DNA of 64,000 nt from NCBI GenBank assembly GCA_030432565.1, contig JAUIGV010000004.1, positions 1 through 64,000 on the forward strand. Direction: 5' to 3'. Under the pieces are notes generated by a model, which saw only the letters and a program-made list of their open reading frames with translations, made no database searches and was not told the DNA's origin. The stretch comes from Verrucomicrobiia bacterium (lineage in GTDB: Bacteria > Verrucomicrobiota > Verrucomicrobiia > Verrucomicrobiales > Akkermansiaceae). Shown piece after piece: positions 36,305 to 54,790 of the stretch; positions within the stretch are counted from its first letter, which is position 1, and the number at the start of each line of letters is the position of its first letter. The translations under genes and the position numbers were made by a program.

Positions 36305-38497
36305 ATGAAACGATTCCTTCCGATCCTTCTCTCACTTCTGGCTATCTCGTCACAGCAATACACTGCCGCCGAAAAACCCAACATCGTCTTTTTCTTTACG
36401 GATGACCAAACGATCTCGACCTTGGGTTGCTATGGAAACCCCGTTGTAAAAACGCCTAACATCGATGCTCTCGCCTCGCGTGGCACCCGATTCCAACAAG
36501 CCTTTGTCAGCCACCCGATCTGTTGGGCCAGCCGGACCTCCATCCTTACCGGCATGACTGCCCGCAGCTACCGCACTCCGGGAAACGGTGACCGCGTTGG
36601 CGATGAAGCTCTCAAAGTTCTCTATTCCGATCTCCTCCGGCAGAACGACTACCGCACCGGCTACTTCGGCAAATGGCACGTCATGTCGTCCCGAAAATTC
36701 GACAAGAAGGCACACTTCGACGAAATCGAAGTCATCGGAAGAAATCCTTTCTTCAAGAAACTTCCCGATGGCACTCTCCGACACGAAACCGACCTCATCG
36801 TGGACAAGGGAATCGATTTCCTGAATCGCCAGCCCAAGGACAAACCTTTTGCTCTCAACATGTGGTTCAATGCATGCCACGCCGAAGACGGCGATCGGCG
36901 CCCCGGCATCGGGCATTTCGCCTGGCCTCAATCCGCCAACGGACTTTACGAAGACACCTACATTGGACCTCCCCGCCTCGCGGACCCCGCGATCTTCGAG
37001 AACCTTCCGGACTTCCTCCAAACCAGCATCACCCGCGAGCGTTATTTCTGGCGCTGGAACACTCCCGAGAAATATCAGACCAACATGCGGGCCTACTACC
37101 GTATGGTAACCGGAATCGACAATGCCATCGGGCGCTTCCTCAAGGCTCTTGATGAGGCTGGACTCGCTGACAACACCATCATCGTTTACTCCGCAGACAA
37201 CGGATACCACATGGCAAATCGCGGGCTCTCCGGCAAGTGGTCTCACTTCGAGGAATCCATCCAGGTTCCCATGATCATTGCCGACCCTCGTGTTCCCAGG
37301 AACAAGCAAGGTCGGGTTTCCAGCCTTCCCGCCCTCAACATCGACCTCCCCGCCACCTTCCTCGACTGGGCTGGCCTCGAAACGCCCGGGCGTTTCGATG
37401 GCCGGAGCCTGAAACCCATCGTTGACGGCAACGAACCGGCAGACTGGCGAACAGACACCTTCCACGAACACTTCGCCGTCCGTCATCGCATACCCGCGTA
37501 CGAAGGAATCCGTACCGCCACCCACAAATATGTCCGCTACATCGATCACGACACCGAGTTCCTTCATGATCTCAAAAACGATCCCGATGAGTTGATCAAC
37601 CTGGCTACAGATCCCAAACATGCAAAGCTCCTCGAAAAACTCCGCAAGCGGACCGACGAGCGAATCAAGGAAATGGGTTCGCCCCTTGATCCACCAAAAC
37701 AAAAATTCACCGCCTCAACACCGCCCCACCCAGAAGCTTCGGCAGCCGTGACCGTTCGCCCCGGCGCAGACGGATTCGTTCGTCTTTTCAACGGTAAAAA
37801 CCTAAGCGGGTGGACTGGCGATAAAAAATATTGGTCGGTCAAGGACGGAGCACTCACCGGAGTCACTGATGGTTCTCTCAAAAAGAATCGCTTCATCACC
37901 TGGAACGGTTCAACCATCCGCAACTTCGAGCTCCACGTAAAAGTGAAATTCAGCGACCGCGCCAACAGCGGAATTCAGTACCGTAGCAAGATGATGCCGG
38001 AGATTGATCTAGATGTCGCGGGCGGCTACCAATGCGACATCATGGCGAGGCCCGAGAACATGAACGGAATGACTTATGAAGAGCGAGGTCGGCGAATCCT
38101 TGGCTATGCGGGCCAAAAAGTCGTTGTGGATCCGACAGGGCAGCCCTGGGTTATCGGGGAAATGGAGGTTAAGAAGTTTGAGCCAAATGTTTGGCATGAT
38201 TACCGCGTCCGGGTTCGAGGCAACCATCATCAGCACTGGATCGACGGCCACAAAACCTCTGATCTCGTTGATCTCGATGAAAAAAGCCGCGCCCTCGAAG
38301 GCATCTTCGGCTTCCAGGTTCATGTCGGGCCCGCCATGCAAATTCAGTTCAAGGATATCCGCATGAAACACTTCCCTGACGACCTCCCACTTCGAACGTC
38401 GGAAGACACCGTGATTCCACCGACCGCTTACGGTGTGCGCCCGCAGGGAACTCCGAAAAAAGGATGGAAAGCCCCCGTATACAAGGACCAAGACTAA
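36305..38497 (+). CDS. Sulfatase fused to DUF1080 domain
   Basis: The 730-residue exported protein has a signal peptide and a sulfatase domain in the first 460 residues. The formylglycine motif is CWASR (Cys73, then TSILTG), with the metal-binding FTDDQ and the histidine-rich GYFGKWH segments seen. From about residue 489 a DUF1080 (3-keto-glucoside hydrolase-like, LamG fold) domain follows, marked by FVRLFNGKNLSGWTGDKKYWSVKDGALTG and NSGIQYRSK. Cys-type sulfatases need a maturation enzyme, not found in this window. The pair in one chain suggests a protein that binds or splits a sulfated carbohydrate and removes sulfate. DUF1080 function varies: some members act on oxidised sugars. Confidence 0.92.
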   Translation: MKRFLPILLSLLAISSQQYTAAEKPNIVFFFTDDQTISTLGCYGNPVVKTPNIDALASRGTRFQQAFVSHPICWASRTSILTGMTARSYRTPGNGDRVGDEALKVLYSDLLRQNDYRTGYFGKWHVMSSRKFDKKAHFDEIEVIGRNPFFKKLPDGTLRHETDLIVDKGIDFLNRQPKDKPFALNMWFNACHAEDGDRRPGIGHFAWPQSANGLYEDTYIGPPRLADPAIFENLPDFLQTSITRERYFWRWNTPEKYQTNMRAYYRMVTGIDNAIGRFLKALDEAGLADNTIIVYSADNGYHMANRGLSGKWSHFEESIQVPMIIADPRVPRNKQGRVSSLPALNIDLPATFLDWAGLETPGRFDGRSLKPIVDGNEPADWRTDTFHEHFAVRHRIPAYEGIRTATHKYVRYIDHDTEFLHDLKNDPDELINLATDPKHAKLLEKLRKRTDERIKEMGSPLDPPKQKFTASTPPHPEASAAVTVRPGADGFVRLFNGKNLSGWTGDKKYWSVKDGALTGVTDGSLKKNRFITWNGSTIRNFELHVKVKFSDRANSGIQYRSKMMPEIDLDVAGGYQCDIMARPENMNGMTYEERGRRILGYAGQKVVVDPTGQPWVIGEMEVKKFEPNVWHDYRVRVRGNHHQHWIDGHKTSDLVDLDEKSRALEGIFGFQVHVGPAMQIQFKDIRMKHFPDDLPLRTSEDTVIPPTAYGVRPQGTPKKGWKAPVYKDQD

Positions 38498-40334: not shown

Positions 40335-41864
40335 ATGAACAATCCCACTTCGAAACTTCTCTACTGGGCCATCACTTGCGCCCTCGCCGGGTTCATCTTT
40401 GGCTTCGACCTCATCGTCATCTCCGGAGCCGAGCAGAAAATCCAGTCTCTCTGGGGACTCAGTGGGCTCCAACACGGACTCGCCATGAGTGCCGCCCTCT
40501 GGGGAACCGTTGTTGGCGCAATCTTCGGAGGCAGGCCCACTGACAAATATGGCCGCAAGAAAGTCCTCCTCTGGATCGGCATCCTCTACTTCGTCTCGGC
40601 CATTGGCTCCGCCTTCGCCCCCAATGTCACCCTCTTCGCGATCTCCCGATTTATTGGTGGAATCGGAATTGGGGTTTCCACCGTCGCCGCCCCTCTCTTC
40701 ATCTCCGAAATCTCTCCCGCCGATCGACGGGGACGCCTTACGGGAATGTTCCAGTTCAACATCGTCCTCGGCCTCCTTGTTGCCACCATTTCCAATGCCG
40801 CCATTCTGTGGATCATGGGCTCCGACAGTGAAACCGCTTGGCGTTGGATGCTTGGCATCGAAGCAATCCCTGCCCTCATTTACTCCTTCATGTGCTTCAG
40901 CCTCCCCGAAAGCCCCCGCTGGCTCATCGACAAAGGACAACGCGACGAGGGGAAGAAAATCCTGGGCCAGATCAACCCTTCCTTCAGCGATACCCAGCTC
41001 GAAGACAAGGTCGTCGAAATCGAGCAAGCCGCCGACCTCGAATCCGGGAGCCCGAGAGTCTTCTGGAAACCTCTCAAGCTCGCTCTCGTTCTCGCCTTCC
41101 TCATCGCCTTCTTCAACCAACTCTCCGGCATCAATGCGATTCTCGGGTATGCACCACGCATCCTCGGCATGACCGGATTCGACCCCGGAGAATCCCTGTT
41201 CAATGCCACCCTCATCACTTTGGTAAACCTCATCTTCACCCTCGTCGGTCTTCGCCTCATCGACAAACTGGGTCGCCGCACCCTGCTCTACATTGGCTCC
41301 ATCGGCTACATCGCTTCACTCTCAATCTGCGCCTGGGCCTTCGATCGCTTTGAAGAAGACTTCGCCATCGTTTCCGATGCCATCACCCTCCGGCAAAACG
41401 TGAATGCCATTCAGAACGACCTCTCATTGGTCCCCGAGCGATTTCAGCCAGTAATCCATGAAAACGATCACTCGCCGGAGCGAATTCTTGACGTTGCAAA
41501 ACATGCTCAGATGGATGGCTCAAAACACAGCTGGTTTGGCGCCGGCCTCGTTCTCATCAGCATCCTTGGCTTCATCGCCGCACACGCCATCGGACAAGGT
41601 GCCGTCATCTGGGTTTTCATCTCGGAAATCTTTCCCGCCGCCGCCAGAGGTTTCGGCCAATCCCTCGGCTCCGCCACCCACTGGGTCTTCGCCGCCATCC
41701 TCACCTTCGTCTTCCCCCTTGCCATGGAGGCATTCACCGCCACCCAAATCTTCGGCTTCTTTGCCTTCATGATGATTCTTCAACTCGTCTGGGTCATACT
41801 GATGGTCCCCGAAACCAAAGGCGTCTCGCTGGAAGACATGCAAAACAATCTCAGTAATCGTTAG
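40335..41864 (+). CDS. MFS sugar porter
   Basis: The 509-residue transporter has twelve predicted helices and the family motifs GGRPTDKYGRKKVL, PADRRGRLTG, PESPRWLI, DKLGRRTLL and PETKG. These are hallmarks of the sugar porter subfamily (like XylE and GLUT). It has an insertion (residues about 350-390, FEEDFAIVSDAITLRQN...) between helices 9 and 10. It starts a tight group with the DUF1592 protein 19 bases later. It probably brings in a monosaccharide released by the neighbouring enzymes, with protons. Confidence 0.94.
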   Translation: MNNPTSKLLYWAITCALAGFIFGFDLIVISGAEQKIQSLWGLSGLQHGLAMSAALWGTVVGAIFGGRPTDKYGRKKVLLWIGILYFVSAIGSAFAPNVTLFAISRFIGGIGIGVSTVAAPLFISEISPADRRGRLTGMFQFNIVLGLLVATISNAAILWIMGSDSETAWRWMLGIEAIPALIYSFMCFSLPESPRWLIDKGQRDEGKKILGQINPSFSDTQLEDKVVEIEQAADLESGSPRVFWKPLKLALVLAFLIAFFNQLSGINAILGYAPRILGMTGFDPGESLFNATLITLVNLIFTLVGLRLIDKLGRRTLLYIGSIGYIASLSICAWAFDRFEEDFAIVSDAITLRQNVNAIQNDLSLVPERFQPVIHENDHSPERILDVAKHAQMDGSKHSWFGAGLVLISILGFIAAHAIGQGAVIWVFISEIFPAAARGFGQSLGSATHWVFAAILTFVFPLAMEAFTATQIFGFFAFMMILQLVWVILMVPETKGVSLEDMQNNLSNR

Positions 41865-41883
41865 TTCCAAACTTCCCCCTGGT

Positions 41884-44412
41884 ATGAAGTTCTTTCTCCC
41901 TTTTCTCTCACTCGTCTCACTCGTTGTGGCTGACGAAATTACTTTCGTGCCGGATCACGAAGGATTCAAGACCATCGCCCGGCCCTACTTCGAGACGCAC
42001 TGCCATTCCTGCCACGGGGAGAAAAAATCCAAAGGTGACCTCAACTTGCAGACCGACCTCAAGAACGACTTCCTCAATCTCGCCGAATCCGCCAAGTGGG
42101 GCGAGATTCTCAACGCCGTGAACGGGCACGAAATGCCCCCGGAGGAGGAACCCCAGCCAATGCCCGAGGACTCCGCCCGCTTTGCCGAATGGGTCGCCAA
42201 CGAGCTTTCCCGCGCCGAGATTTCCAAAAAATCCAGCCGGGTCGTCCTTCGCCGACTGAACCGCGCCGAGTATGCCAATACCATTCGCGACCTTCTCCAC
42301 GTTCGCTTCGATCCCACCGAATTTCCCGAAGATCCACCTTCCGCCGGCTTCGACAACATCGGCTCCGCTCTCACCCTCTCGCCCCTCCATCTCGAACTCT
42401 ACTACAACGCCGCCCGCAACCTCATTGACCAGGCCATCGTCACCGGAGAGAAGCCACCGGTCATCAAATGGCGCTTTGAACCTGATGAATCCACGTCGGG
42501 ACCAGATCGGGACCGGGTGAAACGCGGGGAGAACAACATCATCCTGAATGGTGGAGCCAAAAACAAAATCGTCGATGGCTTCGTCGTCTCACGCTCCCTC
42601 GACTGGGACCGCATCGTGGGCTTCCGTGACTTCCGCGTTGAGCACACGGGCGAATACCTCATCCGCATTCATGCCTCCTCCCGCGTTCCCTCACACGAGG
42701 AAGTCGTCGAATTCATGCGCCCCCTCCTCACCCAACGCGCCCGTGAACAAAGCGAAAAGCGCAACCGCCCCTTCGACCCCAAACGCGTTGCCGACGAACT
42801 CGCCCATTTCCAAAACGACAGCATGTATCACTACGGTCCGTCCCGTTTACGCGTGGAAGGAAAACTCTCCGGACAACCCGCATTCACTCACGAATTCGAT
42901 CTCGAAGCCAGTTGGCCCACCTCCAAAGCCCACGAGATCCGGGCCCACTTCACCACCGAGAAAGCCGGCCTCCAATTCAGACCCGCCTATGAAATCCCAA
43001 AGGTCCTCGAAAACCATTGGGTTCAGGGACGCGAGGAATTCCCGCGACCCGAGGCCATGATCGATTGGATCGAACTCGAGGGCCCCCTTCACCCGGAATG
43101 GCCGCCAAAATCCCAAACCGCCCTCCTCGCTGGCCTTCCCGATGACCTCTCCAGCTGCGGCGAAAAAGAAGCCCGCAAGATCCTCGCCAACTTTATGCCC
43201 AAGGCGTGGCGCCGCCCCGTCACCACCGCCGAGATCGACAAAAAGCTCGCTCTTTTCACCTCTGCCTTCTCCGAAGGCCGCGACTTCCTCGAAGCCCTCA
43301 AGCTCCCGCTCATCGCCACCCTGACCTCACCGCACTTCCTCTTTCTCACCGAACCCTCCACCGAAGCGCGTGCCCTGACTTCACACGAACTCGCCACCCG
43401 CCTCTCCTACTTTCTCACCTCATCCCAACCCGACCCAACGCTGACCTCACTCGCTGATACGGGAAAGCTCGGCAACTCATCGAATCTCATTGAGCAAGCC
43501 GATCGCCTCCTCGCCTCCCCAGCCTCGCAGGCCTTCGTCGAGAACTTCGCCGGGCAATGGCTCGACCTCCGCAAGATCGGCGCCAACCCACCCGCAAGTG
43601 ACCTTTTCCCTCGCTACGACCGTCACCTTGAAACCTCCATCGCCGGAGAGTCCCTCGCATTCTTCCACCATATCCTCCACGAAGACCTCAGCGTCCTCAA
43701 CTTCATCAAATCTGACTTCGTGACCATCAACGAGCGGCTCGCCCGCTTTTACAAAATCCCCGGTGTTCGAGGCGATCATTTCCGTCCCGTCCGCGTCACC
43801 CCCGCTCAAAACCGTGGAGGCCTCCTCACCCAGGCCTCCATTCTCTCCACCACTTCAAATGGAACCCGCACCTCGCCTGTCGTCCGGGGCACCTGGATTC
43901 TCAAAAACCTCCTTGGCACCGACCCCGGACTCCCGGTCGAAAACGTCGGTGAGATCGCTCCCAAAGTTCCCGGTATCGACAAGGCCACCGTCCGGCAACG
44001 CCTCGCCATCCACCGCGAGCTCCCGCAATGCGCGCGATGCCACAACAAGATCGACCCGCTCGGCCTCTCGCTTGAGAACTACAATGCCGCCGGCGAATTC
44101 CGCCTCCAGGAAGGATTCGGCTACAAAGGCCGCATTGGTCAAAACGATCCCGTCATCGACGCCTCCGCCAAGATGCCCGACGGCACCGAATTCGAGGGCG
44201 TCACCGGCCTTCAGAGCCAACTTCTAAAAAAAGAAGACCTCTTCCTTCGCTGCCTCGCCGGAAAAATGTTAACCTATGCCTTGGGTCGCGAAATGGGATA
44301 CTCGGACAAAGCTCTCCTCGACGCCGCCATTTCCCACATGAAGGAAAACAACCGCACTCTCCGTTCCCTCATCCACTTCATCGTCACCTCCGAACCCTTC
44401 ATTACCAAATAA
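41884..44412 (+). CDS. DUF1592/DUF1588/DUF1585 family protein with N-terminal heme c
   Basis: The 842-residue exported protein has a signal peptide and a heme c motif in THCHSCHGEKKSKGDLNL (around residue 40). The following domains match the order found in Planctomycetes: DUF1587 (RLNRAEYANTIRDLLHV), DUF1595, DUF1592 (SHELATRLSYFLTSSQPDP), DUF1588 (NRGGLLTQASILSTTSNGTRTSPVVRG) and DUF1585 near the end (CAGKMLTYALGREMGYSDKALLDA-like). Partner proteins are DUF1552 proteins, here four bases downstream. Function is unknown; an oxidative role linked to periplasmic electron transport is inferred from the heme. Confidence 0.93.
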   Translation: MKFFLPFLSLVSLVVADEITFVPDHEGFKTIARPYFETHCHSCHGEKKSKGDLNLQTDLKNDFLNLAESAKWGEILNAVNGHEMPPEEEPQPMPEDSARFAEWVANELSRAEISKKSSRVVLRRLNRAEYANTIRDLLHVRFDPTEFPEDPPSAGFDNIGSALTLSPLHLELYYNAARNLIDQAIVTGEKPPVIKWRFEPDESTSGPDRDRVKRGENNIILNGGAKNKIVDGFVVSRSLDWDRIVGFRDFRVEHTGEYLIRIHASSRVPSHEEVVEFMRPLLTQRAREQSEKRNRPFDPKRVADELAHFQNDSMYHYGPSRLRVEGKLSGQPAFTHEFDLEASWPTSKAHEIRAHFTTEKAGLQFRPAYEIPKVLENHWVQGREEFPRPEAMIDWIELEGPLHPEWPPKSQTALLAGLPDDLSSCGEKEARKILANFMPKAWRRPVTTAEIDKKLALFTSAFSEGRDFLEALKLPLIATLTSPHFLFLTEPSTEARALTSHELATRLSYFLTSSQPDPTLTSLADTGKLGNSSNLIEQADRLLASPASQAFVENFAGQWLDLRKIGANPPASDLFPRYDRHLETSIAGESLAFFHHILHEDLSVLNFIKSDFVTINERLARFYKIPGVRGDHFRPVRVTPAQNRGGLLTQASILSTTSNGTRTSPVVRGTWILKNLLGTDPGLPVENVGEIAPKVPGIDKATVRQRLAIHRELPQCARCHNKIDPLGLSLENYNAAGEFRLQEGFGYKGRIGQNDPVIDASAKMPDGTEFEGVTGLQSQLLKKEDLFLRCLAGKMLTYALGREMGYSDKALLDAAISHMKENNRTLRSLIHFIVTSEPFITK

Positions 44413-44416
44413 GCCC

Positions 44417-45760
44417 ATGAACCCTCTCCGCAACAAACTCCTCGACCGACGCCTCGTCCTCCGTGGCCTTGGCACCTGCCTCAGCCTCCCCTTGCTCGAG
44501 GCCATGCTTCCCGCTTCCCTCGCCGCCCCTTCAAAATACCGACCTATGGACAAATCCCCAGGTCGTCATCCCCGCTCAATTTTTTGCTACGTCCCCAATG
44601 GCGTCAATATTCTCGAGTGGATGCCCAAGTCCAGCGGCTCGAAGTACGAACTCTCTCCGACTTTACAAACCCTCGCCGCCCATCGCGAAAACTTCAGCGT
44701 CCTCACCGGCCTTGGACACCCTCATTCAAAAGGAGGCCACTCCGGGGCCGACACCTGGCTCACCGGAGCCGACCTCGCCGCCGTTCCAGGCAAGCAATAC
44801 GCCAACACCATTTCCGCCGACCAAATCATGGCCGCCAAACATGGCAAGGACACCCGCTTCCCTTCCCTCCAGCTTTCCGATGGTTCAGGCACCGGTAGTG
44901 CCGGACATTCCCACACGCTCTCCTTCGACCGCCGTGGCACTCCACTCCCGGCCGAAAACAGCCCCCGGCGCCTTTTTGAACGGCTCTTCGTTCCCGATGG
45001 CAGCGATTCAAAAAAGGAAATTCTCCGCCGCTACGCCGAGAAAAAATCCATCCTCGACAGCATCTCAGATGACGCTCGAGCTCTCGAAAAGAAGCTGGGT
45101 AAGACCGACAAGGACAAGCTCGATGAATACTTCACCTCGGTGCGCGAAACCGAACTCCGGGTCGAACGCATGGAGTCATGGATCGACATTCCAAAACCCG
45201 AGGTCGACTCCAGAAACCTTCAACTCGGCAGCCAGGCTCAAAACAAACACGACCGCCCAATGTGGATCGATGTCATGCTCGAACTGAGCTACCTTGCCTT
45301 CGTCACCGACATCACCCGCGTCATCACCTTCGAGTGGTCCCGCGAAGCCGGAGGCTACGGTGGAGGCGGCGAAAACCACCATGAACTCTCCCACCACGGA
45401 GGGGATGCCGGCATGCTTAAATCCCTTGCCAAAATCGACCGCTTTCACCTCGAGCGCCTTGGCCGCTTCCTCACTTTCCTGCAGGAAACGGAAGAAGCCG
45501 AAAGCTCCATGCTCGACTCCACCATGGTCATGTTCGGCAGTGGAATGAACAGCGGCGAAGGCGGAGCCCACTCTCCCAAAAATCTCCCCCTCCTCCTCGC
45601 AGGTGGAAAAGACCTCGGCCTCAAACACGGTCAACACCTCGCCCACGACATCGACAAACATCCCCCCATGTCCAATGTTCTCCTGACCATGATTCAAAAG
45701 ATGGAAATTGAATCATCACAGTTTCAGGATGCCACCGGCACCCTCACCGGACTCACCTAG
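44417..45760 (+). CDS. DUF1552 domain protein
   Basis: The 447-residue protein has a Tat-like start (NKLLDRRLVLRGLGTCLSLPLLEAMLP), as usual for DUF1552, and motifs FCYVPNGVNILEWMP, LTGLGHPHSKGGHSGADTWLTG, SADQIMAAKHG, and a C-terminal MVMFGSGMNSGEGGAHSPKNLPLLLAGG. The fold is thought to be alkaline-phosphatase-like, related to DUF1501. It pairs with the DUF1592 gene four bases upstream and a sulfatase fusion two bases downstream. Its substrate is unknown; the neighbours suggest glycans. Confidence 0.94.
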   Translation: MNPLRNKLLDRRLVLRGLGTCLSLPLLEAMLPASLAAPSKYRPMDKSPGRHPRSIFCYVPNGVNILEWMPKSSGSKYELSPTLQTLAAHRENFSVLTGLGHPHSKGGHSGADTWLTGADLAAVPGKQYANTISADQIMAAKHGKDTRFPSLQLSDGSGTGSAGHSHTLSFDRRGTPLPAENSPRRLFERLFVPDGSDSKKEILRRYAEKKSILDSISDDARALEKKLGKTDKDKLDEYFTSVRETELRVERMESWIDIPKPEVDSRNLQLGSQAQNKHDRPMWIDVMLELSYLAFVTDITRVITFEWSREAGGYGGGGENHHELSHHGGDAGMLKSLAKIDRFHLERLGRFLTFLQETEEAESSMLDSTMVMFGSGMNSGEGGAHSPKNLPLLLAGGKDLGLKHGQHLAHDIDKHPPMSNVLLTMIQKMEIESSQFQDATGTLTGLT

Positions 45761-45762
45761 AA

Positions 45763-48705
45763 ATGAAACTCGTTCTCATTCTCCTCCTCTGCGTCTCCGC
45801 GTCTCTGCGTGCGGCTCCATCCACCAAGAGACCAAACGTTATTGTCGTCTTCATCGATGACATGGGTTACTCCGACTTCTCCTGCTTCGGCGGCACCGTC
45901 AAAACCCAACACATCGACCGGCTCGCTTCGGAGGGAATCCGGTTTACCAACTTTTACGTCAACTCTCCCATCTGCTCCCCGTCCCGGGTCGCCCTCACCA
46001 CCGGACAATACCCGCACCGATGGCGAATCACCTCCTTTCTCAACAATCGTCGCAGCAACAAAAAGCGAGGGATGGCACAATGGTTGGACCCAAAAGCTCC
46101 CACCCTGGCCCGGCAACTTCAAAAAGCCGGATACGCAACCGGGCACTTCGGAAAATGGCACATGGGAGGGCAACGCGATGTCGCTGAAGCTCCTGAAATT
46201 TCAAAGTATGGCTTCGATCAAAGTTTAACCAATTTCGAAGGGATCGGTCCAAAACTTCTCCCTCTTACGCTCAAACCAAATCCGGAAGGAGGCGATCCCA
46301 TCGAAGGTCGTATTTGGGCTGACGCAGAGCGCCTTGGAGAAGGATTCAAATGGATGCAGCGATCTGAAATCACCACTGGCTTCGTTGACGAGGCACTCAA
46401 GTTCATCGACTCATCGGGGGCCAAAGGCAAACCCTTCTTCATCAATCTTTGGCCGGATGATGTGCACGGCCCCTGGTGGCCGCCTCTCGACAAATGGGGT
46501 GGAGATAAGCGGGCTCTCTACAATGGCGTCCTCGACTCCATGGACGAGCAACTCGCCCGCCTCTTTGATCGCGTTCGCAACGACCCAAAGCTTCGCGAAA
46601 ACACCATCATCACGGTTTGCTCCGACAACGGACATGAGCCCGGAGCAGGAACCTCGAGACCATTCCGCGGTGCAAAAACCTGGATGTATGAGGGAGGCAT
46701 CAGATCACCACTCATTATTTGGGCACCCGGACTCATCCCCATGGATAAAAAGGGGTCTGTCAATGAATCATCTGTCTTCTCCGCCATCGACCTCAACCGT
46801 TCGCTCTACTCCATCACCGGAACGGACCCCTCTCAAAATCTCGATGGAGAAGACCTCTCCGCCACCCTCGTTGGAAGTTCTTCCGCCTCACGCAAAGCAC
46901 CCATCTTTTGGAGGCGCCCACCCGATCGCCCCGGTTATGGCCATGGATTCGATGAGGACAATCCCGACCTCGCCGTCCGTGACGGAGACTGGAAATACCT
47001 CGTCAATCTGGATGGCTCTGATCCGCAGCTCTATCATCTCCGACAGGATCCCGGGGAGTCTCAAAACCTCGCGAACCAGAATCCGGGGATCGTCACCAGG
47101 CTTCACAAGGCCCTCCTAAAATGGAATTCCGGGATGCCCGCCGACGGCACTGATCCAACCTACAACAAGACCGGAGCACTTCCCAAAAACCACTTCATAA
47201 ATCCAATCGGACTTGGTCAAGATCCGTGGGTTGTACGCGACAAAAAAAACGAACGCTACCTTTGGTGCTCCTCCGAGGGCGACCGAGCCATCACGATTCA
47301 CACCTCTCAAAATCTCACCTCCTTCGGTCAACGACACCTCGTTTGGCAATCTCCCGAATCCGGCCCATACTCGAGACAAGTTTGGGCTCCCGAACTTCAT
47401 CTTCTTGAGGGAAAATGGCATATCTACTTCGCCGCCTCCGACGGCCAAAACAAAAAGCACCGCGCCTTTGTTCTCCGGTCCAGGACCGAAGACCCTTTGG
47501 GTCAATACGACATCCATGGACCGCTTCAGACCGGAGACACCGACAAACAAAATCTCTGGGCCATCGATATGACACCGCTAAAACTGAAAGACAAACTTTA
47601 CGCGATCTGGTCCGGTTGGGACACCCCCGACTCAGACCGGCAGTTTCTTTACATCGCCGAAATGGAGACTCCACTTAAACTTTCGAGCAGGCGTGTCCGC
47701 ATCTGTAACAACCTCGACTACCCTTGGGAGCGCACGGAAACCGGCCCGGGAGGGAAGGGACTAAACGAAGGACCTCAAGTCCTCCAAAATGGTGATCGAA
47801 TCTTTGTCACCTATTCTTGTGGTGCTTCCTGGCTGCCGAGCTACAAACTCGGGCTGCTTGAACTCACTGGTGACGATCCACTCGATCCATCGTCGTGGAC
47901 AAAGAACAAGAGCTCTATTTTTCAATCCACCAGGGAGACGTTTGGTGTCGGTCATTCATGTTTCGTCAAATCGCCCAACGGATCCGAGTGGTGGCATGTC
48001 TTCCACGCCAAAGAAAACCGAGGTCCCGGCTGGCAACGAAACATCTATATCCAACCCTTCAAATGGTCGGGCGATGGCCTGCCCGTTTTGGGACGTCCCG
48101 CTCCTCGAAACGAGCCCATTCCACGACCAGGCGGAGAGACAAGCAGCATGCTGACCTTGCCCTACTCCTCGGATCTGGCCTCCGACCATTCCTACTTCGG
48201 ACATGCTCAGTTTTACAATCCAAGCCCGAAAGGCCTTAAGCTTGGCTCCAAACCGACAACCCCCGTCAACACATTCCGCAGCGGCGAAAAGATTGTCCTC
48301 AGCGAAGAAACACCCGATGATTTCGTTGCCTCCGTCTCGCTTGACTTTCATGGTGTTCGGGACGGCCGGGGCTCCGGAATTCTTTTTCGCGTCACCGCTC
48401 CCTCTGTCGGCTTCGATGCAGTCCGCGGGTATTTCATCGGCATCAAACCAAGTCAAAACGCCGTTCTCCTTGGCAAGATGGACGGGACCGGTTGGCAGGA
48501 ATTAAAACGCAAATCCATTCCCATCGATGTCTCCAAAAAGCACCAGCTTTCGGTCACTGCAATCGGACCCAAATTCACAATCGCTCTCAACGGAGAGGAA
48601 CTATTCTCTCATCGCGACGCAACTTACAAATTTGGGACGATCGGTCTTCGCGTGACCGATATCCCGACGACTTTTTCAGAGCTAAACATCACTCAGCCCT
48701 GGTGA
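45763..48705 (+). CDS. Sulfatase fused to GH43-like glycosidase
   Basis: The 980-residue exported protein has a signal peptide, a sulfatase domain (about 25-455) with the Cys motif CSPSR (Cys71) and the FIDDMGYSDFSCFGG metal site. Residues about 480-790 resemble a five-bladed GH43 domain, with candidate catalytic residues Asp487 (GQDPWVV), Asp602 (WAIDMTPL) and Glu669 (LNEGPQVL) in the correct order and spacing. The final part (about 800-980) looks like a LamG-type module. The protein would both desulfate and cleave a glycan, perhaps arabinose- or xylose-containing. It begins two bases after the DUF1552 stop and overlaps the convergent transporter gene by 13 bases. The GH43 call is from motif order only. 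Confidence 0.88.
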   Translation: MKLVLILLLCVSASLRAAPSTKRPNVIVVFIDDMGYSDFSCFGGTVKTQHIDRLASEGIRFTNFYVNSPICSPSRVALTTGQYPHRWRITSFLNNRRSNKKRGMAQWLDPKAPTLARQLQKAGYATGHFGKWHMGGQRDVAEAPEISKYGFDQSLTNFEGIGPKLLPLTLKPNPEGGDPIEGRIWADAERLGEGFKWMQRSEITTGFVDEALKFIDSSGAKGKPFFINLWPDDVHGPWWPPLDKWGGDKRALYNGVLDSMDEQLARLFDRVRNDPKLRENTIITVCSDNGHEPGAGTSRPFRGAKTWMYEGGIRSPLIIWAPGLIPMDKKGSVNESSVFSAIDLNRSLYSITGTDPSQNLDGEDLSATLVGSSSASRKAPIFWRRPPDRPGYGHGFDEDNPDLAVRDGDWKYLVNLDGSDPQLYHLRQDPGESQNLANQNPGIVTRLHKALLKWNSGMPADGTDPTYNKTGALPKNHFINPIGLGQDPWVVRDKKNERYLWCSSEGDRAITIHTSQNLTSFGQRHLVWQSPESGPYSRQVWAPELHLLEGKWHIYFAASDGQNKKHRAFVLRSRTEDPLGQYDIHGPLQTGDTDKQNLWAIDMTPLKLKDKLYAIWSGWDTPDSDRQFLYIAEMETPLKLSSRRVRICNNLDYPWERTETGPGGKGLNEGPQVLQNGDRIFVTYSCGASWLPSYKLGLLELTGDDPLDPSSWTKNKSSIFQSTRETFGVGHSCFVKSPNGSEWWHVFHAKENRGPGWQRNIYIQPFKWSGDGLPVLGRPAPRNEPIPRPGGETSSMLTLPYSSDLASDHSYFGHAQFYNPSPKGLKLGSKPTTPVNTFRSGEKIVLSEETPDDFVASVSLDFHGVRDGRGSGILFRVTAPSVGFDAVRGYFIGIKPSQNAVLLGKMDGTGWQELKRKSIPIDVSKKHQLSVTAIGPKFTIALNGEELFSHRDATYKFGTIGLRVTDIPTTFSELNITQPW

Positions 48706-50492
48706 TTATCCACCGGAGAACGGAACAAGGGAACCAGTATACAAATGCCGGACAACAGCAGTGGAATTCCGGGGAGGACAACTCCGTAGAGAGTCAGACC
48801 GGTTCCGACAAGAACGGCAATAATCCCCGCACTTCCGAAGAAAACCTTTATAAGATCGCGGCCCATCGACGGCTCAGAGGGATCGCACGCTTTCGTTCTA
48901 AAGCGATCCCATCCGCGACCCGGAGGAGATGTTTGATTTACAAATCGGGTCAGTATTCCCGGCTCTTCCGGTTCGGTCAAAAAAGTCACCGCCAGCCAAA
49001 CAAAGGTCGTAAGAATGACCGGCCCGACGTAGTTCCACGGCCCCATCGCCACCGACCAACCAAAAGGATCGGCAAAGGGCAAGGTCGACTTGCTCGTGAA
49101 CAAATAGCTGGAAACGATGGCGGTTAGAGAGGCTGCAATCTCACTCCACGCATTTACCCTCCACCAGACCCAACGAAGCAAATACACCAAGCCGGTCCCA
49201 GCGCCGACCATCAACAAGACATCAAACATTTGCGCGGCATTCGTGAAGGCAAGCGCCACCAACGATCCCAGTGCAAGAACGAGAACACTACTCACACGCC
49301 CCACAAAAACCTGCTCTCGTTCGCTGGCCTTTGGATTGCAAAACCTCTTCCAAAAATCATTCGTGAGGTAGGAGGAGGCAAGATTCACCTGGGTCGATAG
49401 TGTGGAAATATAAGCCGCAATCAATGAAGCCAGCACCACTCCTTTTAAGCCCGCCGGGAGCTGGGCGATCATCGCCGGATAGGCAACATCGTGCCCAAGC
49501 TTGCCTTCTTCCAAATCAGGAAAGGCCTGATCGATTGATTCCAAAGTGGGAAAAACCACCAGCGAGGCCAAGGCAATCAAAATCCATGGCCACGGACGCA
49601 AGGCATAGTGAGCTACGTTGAAAAGCAGATTCGCCTTCGTGGCATGCTCCTCATTCCTGGCAGCCAAACTTCGTTGCGCAATATACCCGCCTCCGCCGGG
49701 TTCGGCTCCCGGGTAATAATTGGTCCACCACATCAGAGCGATCGGGATAATGAAGAAGGACACCCAGCTTGAATCTCCGGTTGGGACGATACTCATCTTG
49801 GCCTGCACTGCCTCGTTGGCAAAGAGCCCGTCCAGACCACCGATCGAATCCATGTTTAAAATATAGACCGTCGCAGCCACCGAACCGGCCATGGCCAATC
49901 CAAACTGGAAAAAATCAACCAGTAGCACTGATCGCAATCCCCCCGCGACACTATAAAGCATCGTCACCCCGGCCCCGAGTAGAATGGTCTGCCAAGCATC
50001 CAGGCCCATCAAAACCCCCAGAATTTTGATCGCAGCCAGGGACACCACGGCGATAATGAAAACGTTAAAAAACAAGCCTAGATACAAAGCCCGGTAGGCT
50101 CGCAAAATTCGTCCGCCAGTCCCGGAATATCTCAATTCATAAAACTCAACGTCGGTCATCACACCGGACCTCCGCCAACGACGGGCAAAAACATAAGTAG
50201 TCAGCATCCCTGAAAAGACGAGTGACCACCAAAGCCAGTTCTTAGAAACCCCATCCGTTCTCACCCAGTCGGTAATCAAGGTGGGAGTATCAGCCGCGAA
50301 GGTCGTGGCCACCATGGATACTCCAAGCAACCACCATGGCATGGAACGCCCCGCCAAAAAAAAGCTCTCGGAAGTTCCACTGTTTTTTTTGGCGGCCCAC
50401 CAGCCGATCCCCAAGCTGATCGCCAGTGAAGCGGCAATCACGATCCAGTCCAATCCCTCAATCATGGGACTCTCTCTATCAGCTTCCGGCAA
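48693..50492 (-). CDS. Sodium:solute symporter family transporter
   Basis: This 599-residue membrane protein has about thirteen helices. Family markers are IAASLAISLGIGWWAAKKN, FFLAGRSMPWWLLGVSMVATTFAADTPTLITD and NLASSYLTNDFWKRF. It belongs to the solute:sodium symporters, which import sugars, sialic acid or other solutes. The start at 50492 is uncertain; Met at 50465 (MIEGLDWIV) fits the first helix better. The gene is convergent with the sulfatase-GH43 gene, with 13 shared bases. It likely works with the glycan enzymes here, but the solute is unknown. Confidence 0.92.
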   Translation of the reverse strand: MPEADRESPMIEGLDWIVIAASLAISLGIGWWAAKKNSGTSESFFLAGRSMPWWLLGVSMVATTFAADTPTLITDWVRTDGVSKNWLWWSLVFSGMLTTYVFARRWRRSGVMTDVEFYELRYSGTGGRILRAYRALYLGLFFNVFIIAVVSLAAIKILGVLMGLDAWQTILLGAGVTMLYSVAGGLRSVLLVDFFQFGLAMAGSVAATVYILNMDSIGGLDGLFANEAVQAKMSIVPTGDSSWVSFFIIPIALMWWTNYYPGAEPGGGGYIAQRSLAARNEEHATKANLLFNVAHYALRPWPWILIALASLVVFPTLESIDQAFPDLEEGKLGHDVAYPAMIAQLPAGLKGVVLASLIAAYISTLSTQVNLASSYLTNDFWKRFCNPKASEREQVFVGRVSSVLVLALGSLVALAFTNAAQMFDVLLMVGAGTGLVYLLRWVWWRVNAWSEIAASLTAIVSSYLFTSKSTLPFADPFGWSVAMGPWNYVGPVILTTFVWLAVTFLTEPEEPGILTRFVNQTSPPGRGWDRFRTKACDPSEPSMGRDLIKVFFGSAGIIAVLVGTGLTLYGVVLPGIPLLLSGICILVPLFRSPVDNHQG

Positions 50493-53674: not shown

Positions 53675-54790
53675 ATGAACAAACAGCTTCTCACTCTTTG
53701 CACTTTCCTGCCGTTGGCTGCACCCGCAGCCAAATTCTCAGTCACCTCCAGGCCCTTTGGCGAGGTCGACGGGAAACCGGTTGAACTTTACACCCTCGCC
53801 AACGAATCGGGAGCAAGCGTCTCCATAACCAACTACGGTGGCACGGTAACCTCCATCGTAGTTCCGGACAAAACAGGCAAGATGGGCGATGTTGTTCTCG
53901 GTTTCGACACCGTCGCGGAGTATGTCGAAAAAAGCCCCTACTTTGGTTGCATCACCGGACGATACGCCAATCGTATTGCGAAAGGAAGGTTCACCCTTGA
54001 TGGCAAGGAATACACCGTTGCCACCAACAATGATCCCAACCATCTCCACGGAGGGCTGAAGGGATTCGACAAACAAATTTGGAAGGCAAAAATCGGAAAC
54101 AACACAGACAACCCTACCCTCACCCTGACCTACACCAGCCCCGATGGCGAAGAAGGTTACCCCGGAACTCTGACAAACTCGGTGTCCTACACCTGGACCC
54201 AGGACAATGCTTTGCGAATCCGCTACCGTTCCACCACCGACAAGCCGACCATTCTCAACCTAACCAATCACAGCTACTTCAATCTCGCCGGAGAAGGGAG
54301 CAAGACCAATCTCGATCACCGTATCAAGATCAACGCCAAACACTACACCCCCATTGATGAGACTTCCATCCCGACCGGCATTGCTCCCGTCGAAGGAACT
54401 CCTTTTGACTTCTCCAAACCCACCCGAATCGGCAAACGAATCGATGAGGACAACGAGCAACTCAAAAACGGAAAAGGATACGACCACAACTTTGTCCTTA
54501 AGAAAAAGGATGACGGGAAATTGATGACAGCAGCGATCGTCACCGAACCCACCAGCGGCCGGGTTCTTACGGTCAAAACAACCGAGCCCGGAATCCAGTT
54601 TTACACCGGGAATTTTCTCGACGACGTCAAAGGCAAAGGAGGCAGGAACTACGCCTATCGCTCCGCATTCTGCCTGGAGTCACAAACCTTCCCGGACTCT
54701 CCCAACCAAAAAGAATTCCCCTCACCGGTCCTCCGCCCCGGGGAAACTTACAATCAAGTCACGGTTTACCACTTCGGCATTAAGAAGTAA
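53675..54790 (+). CDS. galM: Aldose 1-epimerase (mutarotase), secreted
   Basis: A 371-residue protein with a signal peptide (NKQLLTLCTFLPLAAPA) and the galactose mutarotase fold. Family segments are SITNYGGTVTSIVVPDKTG, GRYANRIAKGRF, NHLHGGLKGFDKQIW and TNHSYFNLAG, with the catalytic His in the last and GYDHNFVL close to the catalytic Glu region. It interconverts anomers of free sugars, usually galactose or similar, and is placed outside the cytoplasm by the signal peptide. It fits the sugar transporters of the neighbourhood. Confidence 0.94.
   Translation: MNKQLLTLCTFLPLAAPAAKFSVTSRPFGEVDGKPVELYTLANESGASVSITNYGGTVTSIVVPDKTGKMGDVVLGFDTVAEYVEKSPYFGCITGRYANRIAKGRFTLDGKEYTVATNNDPNHLHGGLKGFDKQIWKAKIGNNTDNPTLTLTYTSPDGEEGYPGTLTNSVSYTWTQDNALRIRYRSTTDKPTILNLTNHSYFNLAGEGSKTNLDHRIKINAKHYTPIDETSIPTGIAPVEGTPFDFSKPTRIGKRIDEDNEQLKNGKGYDHNFVLKKKDDGKLMTAAIVTEPTSGRVLTVKTTEPGIQFYTGNFLDDVKGKGGRNYAYRSAFCLESQTFPDSPNQKEFPSPVLRPGETYNQVTVYHFGIKK

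What the first reader, a model, noticed from the sequence alone, without database searches (positions are those of the whole stretch)
45763..48705. One chain with sulfatase and GH43-like glycosidase
Cys71 in CSPSR marks the sulfatase, and Asp487, Asp602 and Glu669 occur in the order and spacing expected for a GH43 triad. Sulfatases and glycosidases usually act as separate enzymes; one exported chain suggests ordered removal of sulfate and sugar from one glycan. A LamG-like end could bind the polymer.
Basis: partly seen in the sequence, partly recalled or inferred. Interest (0 to 1): 0.65.

Follow-up and report, generated by a model that had tools for sequence, protein, structure and literature searches.

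The report
Fused sulfatase and sugar-cutting enzyme
A marine verrucomicrobial gene encodes one secreted protein that joins an intact sulfate-removing enzyme, an intact sugar-cutting enzyme and a probable sugar-binding end. It is a new pairing of a known kind of fusion, shared by many marine Planctomycetota and Verrucomicrobiota, that probably strips sulfate and then the sugar from an algal-type glycan.

Summary
ORF 45763-48705 (+, 980 aa) is an S1 sulfatase (CSPSR, Cys71), a GH43 five-bladed propeller with Asp487/Asp602/Glu669, and a C-terminal jelly roll that matches levanase CBM66 structures better than LamG. It is not an assembly artefact. The same chain occurs in 50 of 80 related loci, including isolates (Roseibacillus ishigakijimensis, Rhodopirellula baltica, Lacipirellula limnantheis). 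Every catalytic residue of both domains is invariant, and both halves are under purifying selection. Relatives carry the halves as two genes, and 17 loci carry an extra sulfatase (S1-S1-GH43). Fusion and fission have been recurrent. The host genome's only other GH43 domain also sits on a sulfatase chain (S1-GH2-GH43), which is two adjacent genes in two relatives. The likely mechanism is desulfation of a non-reducing end followed by exo removal of the sugar, as shown for the Formosa ulvan hybrid P36 (GH78|S1_25). The sugar is unsettled. The closest folds are exo-arabinofuranosidases (GH43_26), but the host lacks AraA and has XylA. Sulfatase-GH fusions, and GH43 hits inside planctomycete sulfatases, are already in the literature. 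It is a new variant of a known kind, of moderate interest.

The parts
45763..48705 (+). Whole gene: signal peptide - S1 sulfatase - linker - GH43 - CBM66-like jelly roll (980 aa)
45763..45816 (+). Probable Sec signal peptide (residues 1-18, MKLVLILLLCVSASLRAA)
   Evidence: Read from the sequence; no predictor run; helix 2-13 in the model
45832..47142 (+). S1 sulfatase module (residues 24 to about 460; Pfam Sulfatase 24-349, SGSH_C 305-452)
   Evidence: VIA Z 43.6 to 7stv; orthologous to stand-alone sulfatases, 56-70% identity
45973..45987 (+). CSPSR formylglycine motif, Cys71-Arg75
   Evidence: invariant in all 48 fused rows covering it
47128..47196 (+). Linker, about residues 456-478
   Evidence: Between SGSH_C and GH43; lower model confidence around 461-470
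47200..48084 (+). GH43 catalytic domain (residues 480-774)
   Evidence: Z about 40 to GH43_26 structures
47221..47223 (+). Asp487, catalytic triad residue 1
   Evidence: invariant
47566..47568 (+). Asp602, catalytic triad residue 2
   Evidence: invariant
47767..47769 (+). Glu669, catalytic triad residue 3
   Evidence: invariant
48280..48681 (+). C-terminal CBM66-like jelly roll (residues about 840-973; Pfam 3keto-disac_hyd just below cut-off)
40335..41864 (+). Sugar porter (MFS), first gene of the packed run; kept next to the fusion in close relatives
41884..44412 (+). PSD/PSCyt cytochrome-type exported protein, same run
44417..45760 (+). DUF1552 (HXXSHH) protein, 2 bp upstream of the fusion gene
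48693..50492 (-). Sodium:solute symporter, convergent, overlapping the 3' end of the fusion gene by 13 bp; conserved neighbour in g1
53675..54790 (+). GalM-type aldose 1-epimerase, conserved near the fusion in g1

Best explanation
It is a secreted bifunctional exo-acting enzyme. The N-terminal S1 sulfatase, activated by oxidation of Cys71 to formylglycine by one of the host's FGE enzymes, removes a sulfate ester at or near the non-reducing end of a glycan. The GH43 propeller, an inverting exo-glycosidase with Asp487 as base, Asp602 as pKa modulator/orienter and Glu669 as acid, then removes the unmasked terminal sugar. That sugar is most likely a pentose: alpha-L-arabinofuranose first choice, beta-D-xylose second. 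The CBM66-like end holds the enzyme on chain ends. Fusion keeps the two consecutive steps together outside the cytoplasm, so desulfated intermediates are not lost; the sugar then enters through the neighbouring sugar porter or Na+ symporter. Shown: domain identity, intact and conserved active sites, widespread occurrence, orthologous split genes, sulfatase-rich surroundings. Inferred: both activities, their order, exo action of both, the substrate, CBM ligand and export.
For: Both domains are far over Pfam cut-offs. The model (pLDDT 91.5, pTM 0.66) matches sulfatases at Z 40-44 and exo-arabinofuranosidases at Z about 40. FGly Cys, Ca-site Asp, Lys, His and Arg residues of the sulfatase and the GH43 triad are invariant in every fused row that covers them (48-51 rows). 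dN/dS is 0.06-0.21 in both catalytic halves. The host has ten FGE-domain matches, the best at E 5e-86. Orthologous stand-alone sulfatase and stand-alone GH43-CBM genes occur in relatives; 11 of 15 genomes with the stand-alone GH43 also carry the sulfatase, against 17 of 109 without it (Fisher p 1e-5, not corrected for phylogeny). In Haloferula luteola they lie in one cluster with a GH127 gene. 16 of 103 neighbours of fused genes elsewhere are sulfatases. Precedent: P36 S1_25 and GH78 modules act consecutively; exo-S1_7 xylose sulfatases and GH43/GH3 xylosidases act in the ulvan pathway as separate enzymes (PMC8360166).
Against: No activity data. The host lacks L-arabinose isomerase and GH127 and has xylose isomerase, which weakens arabinose as the product. 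The nearest solved sulfatases include galactose-type carrageenan sulfatases (S1_19, S1_16, S1_15), so sulfate may sit on a different sugar from the one GH43 removes. GH43 is only 34-37% identical to GH43_26 enzymes. Repeated splitting shows that fusion is not essential. Inter-domain geometry was not measured.
Confidence: 0.6

Rival explanations
1. Two activities on one polymer but on different sugars: the sulfatase removes sulfate from a backbone sugar (for example galactose) while GH43 independently trims arabinose or xylose side residues; fusion only ensures co-delivery.
For: Closest sulfatase structures are galactose or GalNAc sulfatases (S1_16, S1_19, S1_15). Galactokinase genes and GalM lie near. 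The host's other GH43 is fused to a sulfatase plus GH2.
Against: The S1 subfamily could not be assigned (no SulfAtlas on hand), and 30% identity does not fix specificity. The solved precedent P36 works consecutively on one terminal sugar.
Confidence: 0.28
2. Beta-D-xylosidase rather than arabinofuranosidase in the GH43 half, acting on sulfated xylose-containing glycans after a xylose sulfatase step, as in ulvan (a variant of the best explanation, so its probability overlaps with it).
For: XylA present, AraA absent. The adjacent porter's second-best NCBIfam match, below its cut-off, is XylE. XylR-type regulators lie beside some fused genes. The ulvan pathway uses S1_7/S1_8 with GH43.
Against: All best fold matches with known activity are exo-alpha-L-arabinofuranosidases, and all characterised GH43_26 enzymes are arabinofuranosidases (PMC12493170).
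Confidence: 0.3
3. Neutral accretion: gene fusion is common in sulfatase-rich PVC genomes and the joined domains work independently with no mechanistic coupling.
For: Fusion state changes at least 6 times on well-supported branches and 13 times by parsimony. The GH43 half is lost or split in several lineages. Other partners occur: GH127, GH39, a second GH43.
Against: The same partner sulfatase is kept in 50 loci over two phyla, with both active sites invariant. An extra sulfatase was added in 17 loci.
Confidence: 0.2
4. Frame artefact or chimeric assembly joining two genes.
For: The window's genome is a draft in 82 contigs.
Against: Same architecture in many independent assemblies, among them a complete chromosome (L197) and type-strain isolates; 97% identical GH43 half and fused chain in a sister genome.
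Confidence: 0.01

Closest known systems
P36 of Formosa agariphila (GH78|S1_25 hybrid; sulfatase module PDB 6hr5)
   Same: One chain with an S1 sulfatase and an exo-glycosidase; consecutive desulfation and cleavage shown (PMC8511951).
   Different: GH78 alpha-L-rhamnosidase with S1_25, in an ulvan PUL of Bacteroidota. The window pairs a different sulfatase type with GH43, in Verrucomicrobiota and Planctomycetota, with no SusCD-type locus seen.
Sulfatase-GH fusions of Kiritimatiellales and Planctomycetes (S1_7-GH10/GH32, S1_15-GH29; multi-domain sulfatases of Porphyra isolates P1/P2)
   Same: Gene fusion of S1 sulfatase and GH in PVC bacteria; GH43 hits inside sulfatases noted (PMC4807772, PMC6388578).
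   Different: The GH43 hits were read as distant homology, not analysed as an orthologous fused family. Residues, split orthologues and distribution were not given.
GH43_26 exo-1,5-alpha-L-arabinofuranosidases (AtAbf43C 9nxg/9nxj, SaAraf43A 3akf, 5m8b, 5m8e)
   Same: Five-bladed propeller, the same triad, Z about 40.
   Different: 34-37% identity, against 49-63% between characterised GH43_26 members and AtAbf43C; their partner module is CBM42 or none.
Bacillus subtilis levanase C-terminal module (4azz, 4b1l; CBM66 by own knowledge)
   Same: Sequence match over residues 840-973 (E about 2e-8).
   Different: Ligand residues not checked; joined to GH43 instead of a levanase.
Pedobacter yulinensis sulfatase PyuS (7stt/7stv)
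   Same: Closest solved sulfatase, Z 43.6, same Ca/FGly site type (PMC8746622).
   Different: Stand-alone; natural substrate unknown; 33% identity.

Membership tests
S1 formylglycine sulfatase | C/S-x-P-x-R maturation motif | tested here: met
   CSPSR at 71-75, invariant
S1 formylglycine sulfatase | Ca-binding and catalytic residues | tested here: met
   D32, D33, D288, R75, K131, H133, H235, K305 invariant in fused rows; Asn289 read from SDNG
S1 formylglycine sulfatase | Fold and profile score | tested here: met
   Pfam 149 bits against cut-off 25; Z 43.6 over 399 residues
S1 formylglycine sulfatase | Maturation enzyme in host | tested here: met
   10 FGE-family matches; whether they act on this protein is untested
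S1 subfamily (S1_16/S1_19-like) | SulfAtlas subfamily assignment | not testable with these tools
   No SulfAtlas library; nearest structures mix S1_19, S1_16 and S1_15
GH43 | Profile score | tested here: met
   151.7 bits against cut-off 32.2
GH43 | Five-bladed propeller | tested here: met
   Residues 475-791 match five-bladed GH43 structures, Z 39.6-39.9, rmsd about 2 A
GH43 | Asp/Asp/Glu triad | tested here: met
   D487, D602, E669 invariant in 77 fused and solo rows
GH43_26 subfamily | Sequence level of characterised members (49-63% to AtAbf43C) | tested here: inconclusive
   34-37% identity; the CAZy subfamily tree was not available
GH43_26 subfamily | Exo-alpha-1,5-L-arabinofuranosidase activity | not testable with these tools
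   Needs assay
CBM66 | Sequence similarity to the levanase module | tested here: met
   E 1.6e-8 over 134 residues
CBM66 | Ligand-binding residues for terminal fructose | not tested
   Residue list not at hand
P36-type consecutive S1-GH enzyme | Both modules intact on one chain | tested here: met
P36-type consecutive S1-GH enzyme | Product of the sulfatase is substrate of the GH | not testable with these tools
   Needs assay

The most novel reading that the evidence does not exclude
The fused family is a dedicated consecutive enzyme (in 17 loci with two sulfatases) for a sulfated pentose-terminated marine glycan that has no described degradation route, and its repeated assembly in PVC bacteria replaces the polysaccharide-utilisation clusters used by Bacteroidota. 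One chain then carries what a PUL spreads over two or three genes.
Probability: 0.3. Interest if true: 0.62.

Novelty: new variant of a known kind. Interest (0 to 1): 0.42.

Why it matters
PVC bacteria carry more sulfatases than most groups and few have a known substrate. A sulfatase covalently tied to a glycosidase with a readable active site narrows what that sulfatase acts on, and the naturally split orthologues give matched controls. The fused family would be a practical test case for whether joining consecutive steps on a sulfated glycan improves its breakdown, which bears on why sulfated algal polysaccharides persist in the sea.

Tried and rejected
Artefact reading: rejected by recurrence in isolates and a complete chromosome. 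Pseudoenzyme reading for either half: rejected by invariance and purifying selection. Single fusion origin: supported within Akkermansiaceae-type genomes for the GH43 half, though weakly (SH-aLRT 51), while the sulfatase half needs 3 changes; rejected across the wider set (13 changes, at least 6 forced). Arabinose catabolism as support for an arabinofuranosidase: tested and not found in the host. Operon partners as substrate clue: PSD/DUF1552 genes are next to the fusion only in the window and G008, so they were dropped. A phylum sample of 387 genomes gave fusions only in the own genome at E 1e-150, but many stand-alone sulfatase orthologues. Coordinates of the model were not available, so the distance between active sites could not be measured. 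No paper describing this S1-GH43 family was found in the held library, which misses most subscription journals.

Full report
What is there. The window (G000:C49:1-64000 of a 5.93-Mb, 82-contig genome) holds a 980-aa ORF at 45763-48705 (+). Pfam finds Sulfatase at 24-349 (E 2e-43), SGSH_C at 305-452, Glyco_hydro_43 at 480-774 (E 3.7e-44) and a weak 3keto-disac_hyd match at 840-976. The N-terminus looks like a Sec signal peptide by eye. The C-terminal domain matches the solved C-terminal module of Bacillus subtilis levanase (4b1l, 4azz, 4b1m; E about 2e-8), a CBM66 by my own knowledge. 'CBM66-like' is therefore a better name than LamG-like.

Structure. AlphaFold2 on a 90-sequence alignment gave pLDDT 91.5 and pTM 0.66. 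VIA-align matched residues 22-466 to sulfatases (7stv Z 43.6, 399 residues, rmsd 2.3; then S1_19, S1_15 and S1_16 enzymes) and residues 475-791 to exo-alpha-L-arabinofuranosidases of GH43_26 (9nxg, 3akf, 5m8b, 5m8e) and 3k1u (Z 39.6-39.9, rmsd about 2). Sequence identity to these is 34-37%, whereas the ten previously characterised GH43_26 enzymes are 49-63% identical to AtAbf43C (PMC12493170). The domain is thus GH43 and nearest GH43_26, with subfamily membership undecided.

Not an artefact, and under selection. Over 145 genomes of the same family, full fusions occur in the window's genus and two others. A scan of named genomes gave 80 loci: 50 fused, 26 stand-alone GH43, 4 cut by contig ends. 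Fused examples include Roseibacillus ishigakijimensis KCTC 12986, Rhodopirellula baltica BR-MGV, Rhodopirellula maiorica, Neorhodopirellula pilleata, Stieleria tagensis, Roseiconus nitratireducens and the complete chromosome of Lacipirellula limnantheis. Sulfatase D32, D33, C71, R75, K131, H133, H235, D288 and K305 and the GH43 triad are invariant in every fused row covering them. dN/dS is about 0.06-0.21 in both catalytic halves.

Origin. Stand-alone orthologues of each half exist. The sulfatase alone (about 465-560 aa, 56-70% identity) is spread over several genera; the GH43 with the C-terminal domain alone (530-630 aa, 49-56% identity) is common in genus g7. In the genomes without the fusion, 11 of 15 with the GH43 also have the sulfatase, against 17 of 109 without it (Fisher p 1e-5, not corrected for kinship). 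They are usually far apart (62 kb in G039, 88 kb in G064), but in Haloferula luteola (G085, L042) they share a same-strand cluster with a GH127 beta-L-arabinofuranosidase-type gene. On the broad GH43 tree the fused state changes 13 times, at least 6 forced by well-supported branches, and Planctomycetota and Verrucomicrobiota are intermixed. Fusion, fission and transfer have therefore been recurrent. In 17 fused loci a further sulfatase with its own C-x-P-x-R precedes the orthologous one, giving S1-S1-GH43. The GH43 half also pairs with GH127 (L138), GH39 (L202) and a second GH43 (L046).

A second fusion in the same genome. G000 has only two GH43 domains. The other (C62:62313-67280) sits on a 1656-aa sulfatase-GH2-GH43 chain with CCPSR. 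It is intact in G048 (68% identity). In G114 and G093 the same parts are two adjacent co-oriented genes about 20-30 bp apart. Joining of neighbouring genes is therefore caught directly in this family, and both GH43 domains of the window's genome are sulfatase-linked.

How it probably works. The sulfatase needs formylglycine; the genome has ten FGE-family matches. By analogy with P36 of Formosa agariphila, in which S1_25 desulfates the terminal rhamnose and GH78 then removes it (PMC8511951), the sulfatase should uncover a terminal residue that the GH43 removes. Exo action is inferred from the GH43_26 relatives, whose deep narrow pocket fits it. In the ulvan pathway exo-S1_7 xylose sulfatases and GH43/GH3 xylosidases act as separate enzymes (PMC8360166), so the chemistry of the pairing is known. 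The CBM66-like module would hold chain ends. A sugar porter, a Na+/solute symporter and a GalM-type epimerase lie next to the gene and are kept in close relatives. Elsewhere 16 of 103 neighbours of fused genes are sulfatases.

What stays open. The sugar is not settled. Fold similarity says arabinofuranose, as do GH127 partners in relatives. The host, however, has no L-arabinose isomerase match and no GH127, but has xylose isomerase. Nearest sulfatases are galactose types, so the sulfate may sit on another sugar. Distances between active sites could not be measured.

Known or new. Sulfatase-GH fusions in PVC bacteria are on record. Kim et al. 2016 (PMC4807772) report many multi-domain sulfatases with GH domains, a double-sulfatase gene, and 'high incidence' of GH43 hits inside sulfatases, which they read as distant homology; the present result suggests that some of these are fusions. 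van Vliet et al. 2019 (PMC6388578) list S1_7-GH10, S1_7-GH32 and S1_15-GH29. I found no paper on this S1-GH43 family in the held library. The verdict is a new variant of a known kind.

Noticed in passing
L068:4314-9281 (G000:C62:62313-67280): Second sulfatase-GH43 fusion in the same genome: S1-GH2-GH43, 1656 aa; intact in G048, split into two adjacent genes in G114 and G093.
   Followed up: partly
L161:2543-11593: 3017-aa frame with GH2, a TraB/PrgY/gumN domain, a weak GH5-like match, two sulfatases, GH43 and 3keto-disac_hyd in one chain of a Verrucomicrobiales MAG.
   Followed up: no
window 36305-38497: Neighbouring sulfatase with a strong 3keto-disac_hyd end has CWASR (C-x-A-x-R) instead of C-x-P-x-R at the maturation site.
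   Followed up: no
L138:7505-11542: GH127-F5/8-GH43 fusion in planctomycete CA13 using the same GH43 relative.
   Followed up: no
L046:8526-11210: GH43-3keto-GH43 chain with two GH43 domains.
   Followed up: no
L185, L189, L191, L192, L195, L196, L203: Stand-alone relatives of this GH43 plus C-terminal domain in actinobacterial (Nocardioidaceae, Propionibacteriales) MAGs, a possible ancient transfer.
   Followed up: no
window 40335-48705: Four same-strand genes (sugar porter, PSD cytochrome-type, DUF1552, fusion) with gaps of 19, 4 and 2 bp; the PSD/DUF1552 pair is next to the fusion only here and in G008.
   Followed up: partly
L093-L096: Stand-alone sulfatase orthologues in g16 sit among several other sulfatase genes; in L093 a lactonase gene follows, apparently where the GH43 half was lost.
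   Followed up: no
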